Source: Galerina marginata (taxonomy: Eukaryota; Basidiomycota; Agaricomycetes; Agaricales; Galerinaceae). From it: a stretch of 64,000 nucleotides of DNA. Position 1 is the stretch's first letter, and each line of letters opens with the position of its first letter. The stretch is from contig JAECYW010000027.1 in the NCBI GenBank assembly GCA_023014335.1, positions 1-64,000 of the forward strand. The letters run 5' to 3'. The notes beneath the pieces are model-generated. The model had not been told where the DNA came from. It saw only the letters and a program-made list of their open reading frames with translations, and searched no databases. Below are positions 49,473 through 57,875 of this stretch, in pieces. The translations under genes and the position numbers were made by a program.

Positions 49473-49818
49473 ATGGAAAGTTCCGTGACTACATATGCGC
49501 ACAATATCAACCACTCCGGGATCCTAGGCTGGATTTTCGAGTCGTTGCTCGAGGACTTTCCCGTCATCCTCCCGCCGTCCATAAACGACCCACGATACAT
49601 CATTCAGCTCGTCTGCCAGAAGTGGCGAGACACACTGTTTTCGACGCCTTCTTGCTGGAACGCATTTGTCTTCATGCCCACGCCTTTTAATAACTCTGCT
49701 CGTCTTCTTCAAATCTTCGAGATCTATATCCGGAGGAGTGGTTCATGTCCCCTCGGATTTTATTTCCTCACCGACTTTGACAATCACCTCCAGCTACGGA
49801 CTACAAATCCGTACTTAT

Positions 49819-50496
49819 CATCAGAAATCGAGCAGTTTGGTTTTTAGCGGTTTCTCAACTTGAGCAACCAGCAAAAACCAGCAAAAACCGGGAAACCTGG
49901 GAACATGGGTCGAATTGGAGACCTATGTCCCATTTCCCGGAAACCTCACAATATTTTATGGTATGGAAACCTAGAAAACCTACAGAAACCTAAGTAACCA
50001 AGAGAAATGAAGAAATCTATGTAAGTCTCGACGAATGTCAAGGCGAAAATTTTTGTCTATCCTATTACCTCCAAAAGCAAAGACGACAACATTAAAAAGG
50101 AGCATTAAAAAGAACATTCTACTGGAACTACGAAGACTGAGATGTAAGGCAACAATACATCAGAAATCGAGCAGTTTGGTTTTTAGCGGTTTCTCAACTT
50201 GAGCAACCAGCAAAAACCAGCAAAAACCGGGAAACCTGGGAACATGGGTCGAATTGGAGACCTATGTCCCATTTCCCGGAAACCTCACAATATTTTATGG
50301 TATGGAAACCTAGAAAACCTACAGAAACCTAAGTAACCAAGAGAAATGAAGAAATCTATGTAAGTCTCGACGAATGTCAAGGCGAAAATTTTTGTCTATC
50401 CTATTACCTCCAAAAGCAAAGACGACAACATTAAAAAGGAGCATTAAAAAGAACATTCTACTGGAACTACGAAGACTGAGATGTAAGGCAACAATA
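49819..50496. repeat. Tandem duplication of the transposon 5' terminus (2 x 339 bp)
   Basis: 49819-50157 and 50158-50496 appear identical over the whole 339 bp. Both start exactly at the terminal CATCAG, so the element has two left ends in a row. Confidence 0.9.
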
Positions 50497-50528
50497 GCGC
50501 GACATGACAGAACGTATAATGTGCAAGC

Positions 50529-53306: not shown

Positions 53307-56300
53307 ATGGATTCTTTCGACTGCCCAATATGTGGAAAAACATGTCGCTCTCGTGGTGGACTCAGCCGCCATACACAAGCAGTACATTCCGGAATCCCAA
53401 CTCCAGAAGAGTCAAGTCGATATAAGCGCGTTCGTCACCAATTCCTTGATGGTATGTAATACAACAAACTATGCGAAGATGCATCTGACATTGGAATCAG
53501 CGCGGCCTTGCACCGAAGACGGCACATTTCTGGAGCCATCTGGCCCTCGAACACCCCCACCAAGACCCACGGACCCTTCAGAAAAAGCATGGACTCCCTT
53601 TCAAGATCGTCTTGATTTCGACTGGGCTTATTATCATTATGTGCGGCTCCAATCGTCGAAGGCAGAGATTTTGGAAGGTTTAGACCTCTGGCGCGCTGCG
53701 ATCATTAAGCACAGCTCAGAGCATGCAGTGTCTGATGCTGGGCCCTGGCGTAATGCAGATGATCTCTATCGGACAATTGACAAAATTCAGGATGGCGACG
53801 CACCATGGAAGTGCTACAAATTTTCTTATGCAGGACCAAAGCCGCCTAACCCACCGTGTTGGATGGAAGAGACGTACGAACTTAATGCACGAGATGTATT
53901 ACTTGTCCTTGAGCAGCAGTTGGCCACGTCAGATTTTGATGGCCAAACCGACTATGTTCCCTACCAGGAATTCAATGCTAATGGTGATCGGGTGTATTCG
54001 AACTTGATGTCCGCTTGTTGGGCCACTCGTGAAGCAGTAAGCTTCACTGCGACTTCTATCCCCATTGTATACTTACCGTCGAATTTCAGGATAAGATTGC
54101 GTGCGATCCATCAACACATGGGTCCATGTTCGTACCAGTTATAGGTGGTAGTGACAAGACGACTGTCTCTGTTGCAACTGGCCATCAAGAATACCACCCT
54201 GTGTATACGTCACCTGGAATTATATCTAACACTGCTCGGCGTGGACATGGAAATGGTGTTTTGCCCGTCGCTTTCCTCCCAATACCAAAAAGTATGTACT
54301 TCTAAAGCATTATAATTCTGCGCATGATTTTTACTGTATTATCTTGATCTAGCCAGTAAACGACAAAGAAAGCGCCCTGCATTCCAGCGGTTCTGCCGTC
54401 AGCTCTATCATCGATGCCTTGAGATTGTTTTCGGGCCTCTTAAGCCCTATATGGACACGTACAAGGTTGTCAAATGCCCAGATGGACATTTTCGCCGTGC
54501 AATCTTTGGTCTGGGGCCCTACATAGCTGACTACCCTGAACAAGTTTGGCTTGCTTGCGTCGTCTATACCTGGTGTCCCAAGTGCGTTATTTATATGCTA
54601 TTACCCCTAGCTATCTGGCTAATGTACTCCTAGATGTGATGCTATGCCTGATAATCTTGATGCCCCGGGAAGTCATCGTCGCTCGCATGAAAAAACCGAT
54701 GTTTTCATCAAGAATTTTGATCCTGGCATTCTTTGGGATGACTTCGGAATTCGGAGTGACGTCGTGGTTCGTTTGTTTATTGTACAAGTACCCACTAATT
54801 GAGATGATATTGACTCGGTTTATTTCTCGCTAGCCTTTTACACATGGATTTCCTCGCGCTGACATCCATGAACTGCTCGCTCCTGACCTTCTGCATCAAC
54901 TAATCAAAGGCGTGTTTAAAGATCACCTAGTGACGTGGGTGGGCGATTACCTATATCAAACTCATGGCGAGGCGATGGCATTGGAGATCATTGAGGACAT
55001 TGATCATCGGTGATTACCTACTTTCAAATATGAATTAATTTGTTGGCCTCTGACTATGAATTCAGTATCTCAGCAGTTCCTCCATACCCTGGCCTTCGCC
55101 GATTCCCGGATGGTCGGGACTATAATCAGTGGACGGGCGATGATTCAAAAGCATTGATGAAGGTCTGTAGTTACTTATTCAAAATATGAAATACTCGAAG
55201 AAACTCACAGTCATAGCAGGTATATCTAGCCGCAATCGCAGGCTATTTACCATCAGCGATGGTCCAATGCATAGCTACTTTCATGGATGCATGCTACATA
55301 GCTCGCCGCAACGCGATTACTGGTCCCGCACTTGAACATTTTCGAACATGTGTTGAGAAATTCCATAAGCTACGCAATATCTTTATCGAGGCAGGGATCC
55401 GATCAGCAATATCACTGCCACGTCAGCACGCCCTTGACCATTATTTCTATCTAATTCACCTCTTTGGCTCTCCCAACGGGCTCTGCTCCTCCATCACCGA
55501 GTCCAAGCACATCAAGGCTGTGAAAGAGCCATGGCGCCGGTCAAGTCGATACAAGGCACTCATTCAGATGCTCCAAACACTTGTCCGAATGGAGAAAATG
55601 GAGACAATTCGACGTAAATTCAACAAGATGGGAATGCTGGCCGGGACGACCTCATCGTACATGGCGCGAATGAAGACCGAGGACAACAAGGAAGATGTCG
55701 CGGATGTTGACGCTGAAGCTTACACTGATGCTGAGGAGGATGAGGAGGATGACGGAGGCCCTGTGGATGGTAGTTCGACGGATGCGATGTCTGACGTCAA
55801 GCTCGCAGTAAAATCCGGTATGTTTGCTATCTTTTTATCATATCATTTCTGTCTAATATATTTGTAGAACCTTGCTACCCCCGCGATCTGCGTCAACTTG
55901 CCGCATTTATACACCAGCCCGACTTTCCGTTTGCGATGCGCCGATTTCTCTTTGCGCTGAACCATCCAGACCAAACAGCGCCCCTCGAACTCGAAAATTT
56001 GCCCTTGTTTGAAGGACAGATCAGGGTCTATCACTCCGCTATTGCAACATTCTACGCACCCAGTGATTTATGTGGAGCTGGTGGCTTGCGTCGGGAACGT
56101 ATTCGGTCAACCCCTTCTTTCCATGGACAAGAACGCCGCGACACCGTATTTGTGGTTCTCGATGAGTCGCAGAGCGGGATGGAGGGCATGGAAATTGGGA
56201 GGGTTCTTCTTTTCTTCTCCTTCCTCTATCGTCGAAAAACCTATTCATGCGCACTGATTAATTGGTTTGTGCACGATGATGAACCTGATCGTGACACAGG

Positions 56301-56520
56301 CATGTGGACTGTCCAATTAGAGTGTGATCGGAGAGGACAGCCGACTGTTGAAGTCATCGACATTGATAGTATTGCTAGAGGGGCGCATCTCCTGCCTATT
56401 TATGGCTCTTCTCGAGTTCCGGACGATTTTAGTCACCACGACGCCTTAGATAGCTTCAACTCATTCTTCGTTAACCATTTTATTGACCATCATGCTCACG
56501 AATTTATTACTATGTCATAG
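53307..56520 (+). CDS. Plavaka transposase
   Basis: Exon 1 (53307-53451) starts MDSFDCPICGKTC and carries a C2H2 finger (C-x2-C ... H-x4-H). Exon 2 (53501-54036) has the DFDWAYYHYVRLQ and DAPWKCYKFSY blocks. Exon 3 (from 54090) has STHGSMFVPVIGGSDKTTVS. Further exons carry FGPLKPYMDTYKVVKCPDGH, YTWCPKCDAMPDNLD, ADIHELLAPDLLHQLIKGVF and LPRQHALDHYFYLIHLFGSP, and an acidic run AEEDEEDDGG. The final exon ends at 56520. These are the conserved blocks of the Plavaka transposase family of basidiomycetes, which moves CACTA-like cut-and-paste elements. About nine exons join without stops. It lies wholly within the element at 49819-56671. Confidence 0.85.
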
Positions 56521-57875
56521 ATACGTTGTTTTGTACCTTTAACTAGTGTAGAGTAGTTACTTAATTAACTATCTGGCAGGTTTCCGGGTTTCCAGGTTCC
56601 TGGTTTTTGGAAACCCAAAAACCAACGGAAACCGATGAAAACCCGGAAACTATTTGGACGTTTTGCTGATGATTCAGTCTCCGAATCGAACAACTCGTGT
56701 ACGGTCGGGGAGTTTTCAGCATCCTCCAGTCGATTATCCTGCCATACGCCGAACGCATACAGCATTTACAATGCTTAATTTACAAGGAGCAAAACGCGGA
56801 ACTCTTGCTCGACATCCAGGCTGGACGGTTCCAATTATTGGAGTCCATCAATATAATTTTCATTAACGATTTTAATTCACATCGTTGTCCCTTTACTTTT
56901 CAACAATCACTGAGTTTCAAGGCTTTCCAGTCACTCCCCCGTTTGCGTCAGGCAACCGTTCGCATAATGAATAACATCCATCCTCTTGACCTACGTCTCC
57001 CAATCCACCAAATCGTCAAGTTGGACCTCGTAAATACGCCAATATCTTCAGATACTTTCATTAAGATAATGCACCAATCGGCGCTTTCTCTTCTAGACGG
57101 CGCATTTCACGTTGAGCTTAGCGTCCACGCAAATCAGTTTCTGAAGTCTTCCCGTCCTCTGTGTATGCCGAAGATCGCGCATTTTCACATCCGAATCGTT
57201 AACCCGGGCTTTTACCCGGATATCATCCGCCTCTTCCGTTTCCCAGTGCTTAGAAGGCTCCGGGTCGAAAGATCTGATCAATGTTCTCCCTTCCAGTGGG
57301 ATGTCCCACGATATACAACGATGATCGCAACATCGACGGTTCCAATCGAAACGCTGGTTCTAGCAAACTGTGCGGTCGGTTTTGGCGCAACTTCGCTCGT
57401 CAAACGCAGTCGACGTGATACATCCTACCAGGAATTAGAGGAATTATTCATGCTAGCTCGTGATGTGCATACTTTGGTCCTACCATGGAGCGTTCATGTA
57501 CACCTCCCAACAATTCTAAAAATTGCTACAGGGGAAATGCTTCCCCGTTTGCAAGTTTTCGAATTCGGTACCACCCACCCAGCCATCGCTATCGACATGG
57601 TCCGCGAGAGGAACGAGCACAGCTCCTTATCCAGCTCCACTGGTGCCGTTTCTCCCGCTCCCATCATACGACTGGGCCTCACCATGCCATCGATCGAACC
57701 TGAAGGGCAAGCGGCACTGAGGAAGAAAGTGGAATTACTTGGTCTGCCCGGTGGCGCTATCCTCAATTATTTACCCATTTTCATGTTTTCCTTTGCAACC
57801 TGATATGATCCATTTCTCACGATGACTTCGTGGACTCTTGGATTTTCGTATTTATCAAAGAAGTAGATTAGATAC

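What the first reader, a model, noticed from the sequence alone, without database searches (positions are those of the whole stretch)
49473..57803. Plavaka insertion in an F-box gene with an in-frame empty site
Seen: host-like coding sequence stops at 49818 and resumes at 56674. Deleting the element and one copy of AT joins 346 + 1130 nt into 492 codons with no stop. Short inverted termini (CATCAG...) lie exactly at both borders. Inference: insertion was precise, with a 2-bp target duplication, and recent enough that the 3' half still has no stop. If excision is as precise, the gene could revert. This also gives a clean estimate of the terminal sequence and target duplication of this Plavaka lineage.
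Basis: partly seen in the sequence, partly recalled or inferred. Interest (0 to 1): 0.75.

Follow-up and report, generated by a model that had tools for sequence, protein, structure and literature searches.

The report
Mushroom jumping gene splitting an F-box gene
A cut-and-paste transposon of a known mushroom family (PlavakaB) recently landed inside a conserved F-box-like gene and duplicated two target bases, which uninterrupted sister genes in the same genome confirm; it also carries a second gene of unknown function beside its transposase.

Summary
Confirmed. The window (contig C20 of a 69.3-Mb fungal assembly, probably a Galerina relative) holds a 6,853-bp element (49819-56671), flanked by AT, inside a 491-codon gene. 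Three uninterrupted paralogs in the same genome align across the join; two encode exactly 491 aa. The ends CATCAG/CTGATG and a 2-bp target duplication recur: of 25 independent paired-end copies, 18 have 2 bp, 2 have 3 bp, 5 none. These are published PlavakaB features, so the insertion is ordinary; unrelaxed constraint on the host gene's branch makes it recent. I propose a two-protein transposon with a TnpA-like partner; binding is untested. (3) Five near-identical 271-bp derivatives suggest recent activity. Excision was not testable.

The parts
49473..49818 (+). 5' part of the interrupted host gene (codons 1-115 plus 1 nt), F-box-like family
   Evidence: join; paralogs L010 and L011 intact with the corresponding start
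49817..49818 (.). target site duplication, left copy (AT)
   Evidence: single AT in the uninterrupted site of paralogs L010 and L011
49819..56671 (+). PlavakaB transposon, 6,853 bp (6,514 bp without the extra terminal unit)
   Evidence: borders by paralogs and by other copies; PF18759
49819..49824 (+). 5' terminal inverted repeat CATCAG
49819..50157 (+). outer copy of the 339-bp terminal unit
   Evidence: identical to 50158-50496; present once in the C28 copy
50158..50496 (+). inner copy of the 339-bp terminal unit, beginning with a second CATCAG 5' end
50529..53030 (-). accessory gene, 9-exon model, 668 aa, open; AT-hook-like N-terminal part (by eye), distantly DUF6532-like C-terminal part
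   Evidence: model; homologs; PF20149 in 3 of 13 homologs; constraint
53031..53306 (.). 276-bp gap between the two divergent start codons, inferred bidirectional promoter
   Evidence: gene models; promoter function inferred
53307..56520 (+). Plavaka transposase gene, 9-exon model, 922 aa, open; CPKC and HRRSH motifs
   Evidence: PF18759 matches at 53746-54941
56521..56671 (+). 3' subterminal region, shared in part with non-autonomous copies
   Evidence: 24 of 25 matches end at its last base
56666..56671 (+). 3' terminal inverted repeat CTGATG
56672..56673 (.). target site duplication, right copy (AT)
56674..57803 (+). 3' part of the interrupted host gene, open to the native stop

Best explanation
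A complete PlavakaB DNA transposon inserted by a cut-and-paste reaction into codon 116 of an F-box-like gene. Shown: precise ends CATCAG/CTGATG, a 2-bp target duplication, an open transposase model and an open divergent accessory-gene model, and an uninterrupted state preserved in paralogs. Inferred: the DDE transposase cuts at the ends and joins them to a target with a 2-bp stagger; the accessory protein assists by binding the A/C-rich subterminal repeats, as TnpA does for plant CACTA elements (about 0.4); the host gene is now null, because its reading frame stops 9 codons on; and the extra 339-bp terminal unit arose when a sister copy inserted next to position 339 and then recombined with the outer copy (about 0.4). 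The confidence below refers to the insertion itself.
For: Empty site. Transposase PF18759; open 922-aa model. Two-bp duplications in 18 of 25 independent paired-end copies, random expectation 1/16 each, P about 7e-17, plus the best-scoring pair of ends in each of 3 more distant copies. Constraint on the transposase, omega 0.07-0.15, and on the accessory gene, omega 0.17-0.35, over four copy comparisons. Six of six accessory loci found lie 2.1-2.3 kb from a PF18759 cluster and divergent from it, while at most 0.6% of the genome lies within 3 kb of one. Five 271-bp derivatives about 100% identical (rounded) at five sites. Published PlavakaB features agree.
Against: Five of 25 independent copies lack any duplication, including C28, the closest long copy. 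Transposition and excision were never observed. Only 6 of 64 PF18759 clusters have the accessory protein match beside them, so it belongs at most to one Plavaka lineage; two of the six (C29, C9) match only at 28% and 25% identity over one stretch, C9 at E 9.5e-4. The six loci are related elements, so they are not independent. The accessory protein has no solved-structure match (on a model of a homolog with mean pLDDT 56), no Pfam match above cut-off, and no shown DNA binding. Two of the four constraint comparisons have dS near 2, close to saturation, and one copy is truncated. Both gene models are intron predictions without RNA support.
Confidence: 0.93

Rival explanations
1. The accessory gene is a passenger and not a transposition factor: a host-derived or regulatory gene, for example anti-silencing, that rides in this PlavakaB lineage.
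For: Other PlavakaB families carry a TET/JBP gene as extra cargo. Most PF18759 clusters (58 of 64) have no match to it within 3 kb, so Plavaka transposition in general need not use it. No fold or family match points to DNA binding. Its constraint is weaker than the transposase's in all four comparisons.
Against: The six loci found keep spacing and orientation, even at 25-28% protein identity. It is under purifying selection.
Confidence: 0.4
2. The 339-bp terminal tandem duplication is an assembly error.
For: The units are 100% identical, and an exact search for this 5' end finds no second end beside any other copy. No reads were available.
Against: The unit begins exactly at the element terminus, which a random assembly slip would not favour. 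The window has no N.
Confidence: 0.25
3. The terminal duplication arose by template switching during repair of a break left by excision.
For: Such repair is known to rearrange cut-and-paste transposons (recalled, no call).
Against: The junction shows no microhomology by eye and lies exactly at the terminus (sequence; C28 comparison). That fits transposase cutting better.
Confidence: 0.25
4. The two coding halves are unrelated fragments or a captured gene and not one interrupted gene.
For: None found.
Against: Three paralogs are collinear across the join, flanks included. Two are the same 491 codons without indels.
Confidence: 0.01

Closest known systems
PlavakaB DNA transposons of Agaricomycotina (PMC12730594; passages and section 3.2.2 seen)
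   Same: Termini CATCA..TGATG, 2- or 3-bp target duplications, Plavaka transposase with C(2)C and H(3-4)H motifs.
   Different: No TET/JBP domain was reported by Pfam in the accessory model.
En/Spm (CACTA) two-component elements of plants, TnpD plus TnpA (passages of PMC2613891)
   Same: A transposase of the related CMCT clade plus a second element-encoded protein; repeat-rich subterminal ends.
   Different: TnpA and TnpD come from alternatively spliced transcripts of one unit; here the genes are separate and divergent. No sequence link between TnpA and the accessory protein was sought. TnpA end binding is published; here it is inferred.
Marasmius oreades Plavaka families (PMC8290104, PMC9674265; passages seen)
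   Same: Plavaka defined by PF18759, with terminal motifs characterised.
   Different: The Plavaka deletion described there was not a clean excision. No gene interruption of this kind was described in the passages seen.

Membership tests
Plavaka | PF18759 transposase domain | tested here: met
   E 1.8e-25 on one ORF; four exon-wise matches along C20 53746-54941
PlavakaB | termini 5'-CATCA..TGATG-3' | tested here: met
   definition from PMC12730594 section 3.2.2
PlavakaB | 2- or 3-bp target site duplication | tested here: met
   AT here, confirmed by paralogs; family-wide 18 of 25 two-bp, 2 of 25 three-bp, 5 of 25 none
CMCT clade (EnSpm, Mirage, Chapaev, Transib, Plavaka) | C(2)C and H(3-4)H motifs between second D and last E | tested here: met
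   CPKC at residue 369 and HRRSH at 385 of the 922-aa model; the D and E residues were assigned by eye, not by alignment
PlavakaB | placement in the PlavakaB clade of a transposase tree | not tested
   the reference sequences are in supplementary data that were not available
TET+ PlavakaB | encodes a TET/JBP dioxygenase | tested here: not met
   no such domain in the accessory model or in the pieces scanned (six of its eight pieces lie in the element); the whole transposase model was not scanned
CACTA TnpA-type partner | protein binds subterminal repeats and is needed for transposition | not testable with these tools
   needs a binding or transposition assay
F-box family (host gene) | F-box domain above Pfam cut-off | tested here: inconclusive
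   PF12937 E 0.12, 12.6 bits against a cut-off of 24.3, in L011; none in L010; none in the two halves of the interrupted gene; UniRef names the three Galerina homologs F-box domain-containing
DUF6532 (accessory gene) | PF20149 above cut-off | tested here: not met
   none in the 668-aa model; 3 of 13 homologs match at E up to 0.01, best 7.2e-06

The most novel reading that the evidence does not exclude
One lineage of agaricomycete PlavakaB elements is a two-component transposon. A divergent accessory protein (AT-hook-like N-terminus, distant DUF6532 helical domain) pairs with the DDE transposase and binds the subterminal repeats. Many genes of the unexplained DUF6532 family in mushroom genomes would then be Plavaka transposition partners.
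Probability: 0.4. Interest if true: 0.6.

Novelty: new member of a known kind. Interest (0 to 1): 0.4.

Why it matters
It is a clean natural reference for PlavakaB insertion: ends, 2-bp duplication and empty site are fixed by paralogs in one genome. Open transposase and accessory models plus near-identical short derivatives make this a candidate for a functional Plavaka transposition assay. The second gene, if it is a transposition partner, would give a role to a lineage of mushroom proteins now listed only as hypothetical.

Tried and rejected
An intron was rejected as the reading of the gap: the borders are CATCAG...CTGATG and not GT...AG, and the paralogs lack the sequence. Capture of unrelated fragments was rejected. 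Orthology of the interrupted gene with one of the three Galerina marginata proteins stayed unresolved: only the L011-P0014 pair is supported (100/99), and the rest of the tree is open. A fold search with the accessory homolog P0001 listed 15 chains, none at E up to 0.001; the model is weak (mean pLDDT 56). The first intron set for the transposase was one base off at intron 4 and lacked the later introns; it was replaced. A 1,318-bp derivative (L038) was checked for internal end duplication and has none. Statements that the accessory gene is undescribed rest only on the searches and on passages seen.
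Full report
Source. The window is contig C20, 1-64000, of an unnamed 69,315,313-bp assembly in 43 contigs. Searched with paralog L010, the gene family's best outside relatives are three Galerina marginata CBS 339.88 proteins at 73-80% identity, then one of Hebeloma at 29%. A Galerina relative is therefore likely, by inference.

The observation. Deleting 49819-56671 and one AT joins 346 and 1,130 nt into 1,476 nt: 491 codons and a stop. Of six offsets tried only the two equivalent ones keep the frame. 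A genome search with 56672-57803 found the window and three more places, C11, C42 and C10. All three align through the junction with their upstream flanks, at 86%, 81% and 77% identity, covering at most window 49007-57812. L010 and L011 encode 491 aa from the corresponding start to the corresponding stop, without indels; L011 also has an in-frame ATG further upstream. L012 is split over two reading frames but is not interrupted at this place. Two of the three read ACTTATTCAGTCTC exactly at the join; L012 does not contain TTATTCAG. Three Galerina proteins also run through this position.

Age. Between the interrupted gene and L010, dS is 0.406 and dN 0.078 (omega 0.19). Against L011 omega is 0.16 for the interrupted gene and 0.19 for L010. 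With L011 as outgroup, the interrupted branch has 34 synonymous and 21 nonsynonymous changes, and the L010 branch 34.5 and 19.5. There is no excess of nonsynonymous change. A crude Poisson bound puts at most 10-12% of that branch after the insertion, or about 1% neutral divergence. The missing stop alone is weak evidence, because about 86 neutral substitutions would be needed for a 95% chance of one.

Family-wide ends. The exact 13-mer CGTTTTGCTGATG occurs 34 times in the genome, against 1 for its reversed control. I held all 34 ends and sought the paired 5' end by similarity to four templates, without using the duplication to choose it; the templates include ends of the window and of copies seen earlier. 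Eight had no recognisable 5' end in the stretch held. Of 26 paired copies, 18 have a 2-bp duplication (17; the window, which the script paired with its inner end, counted with its outer end), 2 have 3 bp (CCG, CTT) and 6 have none. Two of those six (L060, L063) share flanks and count once, giving 18, 2 and 5 of 25. The 2-bp duplications differ in sequence (AT, TC, CA, AA, TG, GA, TA, TT), which fixes the element boundary at CATCAG. In three more divergent copies, on C9, C29 and C7, the best-scoring pair of ends also has a 2-bp duplication; lower-scoring pairs were listed too, one on C7 with 3 bp. C28, the closest long copy, has none.

Comparison with print. Section 3.2.2 of PMC12730594 gives PlavakaB termini 5'-CATCA..TGATG-3' and 2- or 3-bp duplications. 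The element meets this, so its ends are not new.

Element content. The transposase model has nine exons with GT-AG introns and 922 open codons. PF18759 matches lie along it. CPKC and HRRSH lie in the expected order; the D and E residues were assigned by eye. On the other strand a nine-exon model gives 668 open codons. Its C-terminal part has 13 relatives at E up to 0.001 among 1,213 candidates, in Laccaria, Phlegmacium, Russula, Psilocybe, Hypholoma, Lactarius and Gymnopilus, each named hypothetical. Three of the 13 match DUF6532; the model itself does not. Two RGR/GRP-type stretches near its N-terminus look like AT-hooks by eye only. A structure model of the homolog P0001 is helical in its C-terminal part but weak, and no fold match came of it.

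The second gene and the transposase. In this genome the accessory C-terminal part matches 16 stretches (18 candidates scored; counts are lower bounds) that cluster into six loci. All six lie 2.1-2.3 kb from a PF18759 cluster and are divergent from it. All six fall between recognised element ends. The two most distant, on C29 and C9, match over one stretch only, C9 at E 9.5e-4. At DNA level a seventh, truncated copy on C1 also keeps part of the region. At most 0.6% of the genome lies within 3 kb of a PF18759 cluster. Against a general rule: 58 of 64 PF18759 clusters have no such match beside them, and the six loci are related elements, not independent cases. Between the window and four other copies omega is 0.17-0.35 for the accessory gene and 0.07-0.15 for the transposase; one of the four is truncated, and two have dS near 2, close to saturation. 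Those copies contain 0-3 in-frame stops per gene in the aligned codons. The window copy has none in either model.

The terminal duplication. 49819-50157 equals 50158-50496 in all 339 bases. The unit begins exactly at the terminus and the junction shows no microhomology by eye. C28 has one unit and runs on without a break at the same point. An exact pattern for this 5' end finds nine places, two of them in the window and no other pair side by side. The target duplication pairs with the outer end. My preferred origin is self-insertion followed by recombination; repair errors or misassembly are not excluded.

Activity. Five 271-bp derivatives are 100% identical after rounding, at five sites; a sixth is 96% identical. 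The five have duplications TC, CA, AA, TG and CCG, the sixth none. This argues for recent mobilisation by a PlavakaB transposase. Which copy supplied it is not known.

Mechanism. Shown: ends, duplication, open models, empty site, constraint. Inferred: DDE cut-and-paste with a 2-bp stagger, a TnpA-like role for the accessory protein, and loss of host gene function. PMC2613891 passages state that TnpA recognises subterminal repeats and that both TnpA and TnpD are required in En/Spm; this is analogy only. In a simple count, AAACC occurs 5 times in the outer 150 bp and 4 times in the last 150 bp, of 22 in the 6,853-bp element. No significance test was made.

Limits. No strain data, reads or RNA were available. 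Excision was not tested. In PMC9674265 the Plavaka deletion described was not a clean excision.

Noticed in passing
genome G000 C23:2780865-2874413: Five Plavaka transposase matches and five DUF6532 matches repeat at 19.4-19.5-kb spacing on one contig, like a tandem array of whole large elements.
   Followed up: no
genome G000: C23:1078466/1108137, C29:420146/449774, C35:151183/179763, C8:350808/381847: Four PF18759 and DUF6532 pairs lie about 29-30 kb apart, suggesting giant Plavaka elements; 16 of 22 DUF6532 clusters lie within 31 kb of a PF18759 cluster, against at most 5.8% of the genome, and 6 of 22 do not. Many are copies of one another, so not independent. Giant repeats flanked by a Plavaka transposase are reported in Amoebidium (passage of PMC11244446).
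   Followed up: partly
window 58017-58243: Cluster of CCCGAGA-type direct repeats facing inverted copies (arms up to 45 nt), about 200 bp after the point where similarity to paralog L010 ends; a possible short inverted-repeat element.
   Followed up: no
L038 (G000 C2, about 1876705): A 1,318-bp derivative with the same ends and an AA duplication, much longer than the 269-299 bp copies; its interior was not identified.
   Followed up: partly
L060 and L063 (G000 C17 and C27): A 299-bp copy with identical 8-bp flanks on two contigs, so probably a duplicated segment; it shows no target duplication.
   Followed up: no
window 49819-49890: The 5' end contains an inverted self-similar stretch: window positions 20-62 of the end match C28 in both orientations, a possible hairpin near the terminus.
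   Followed up: no
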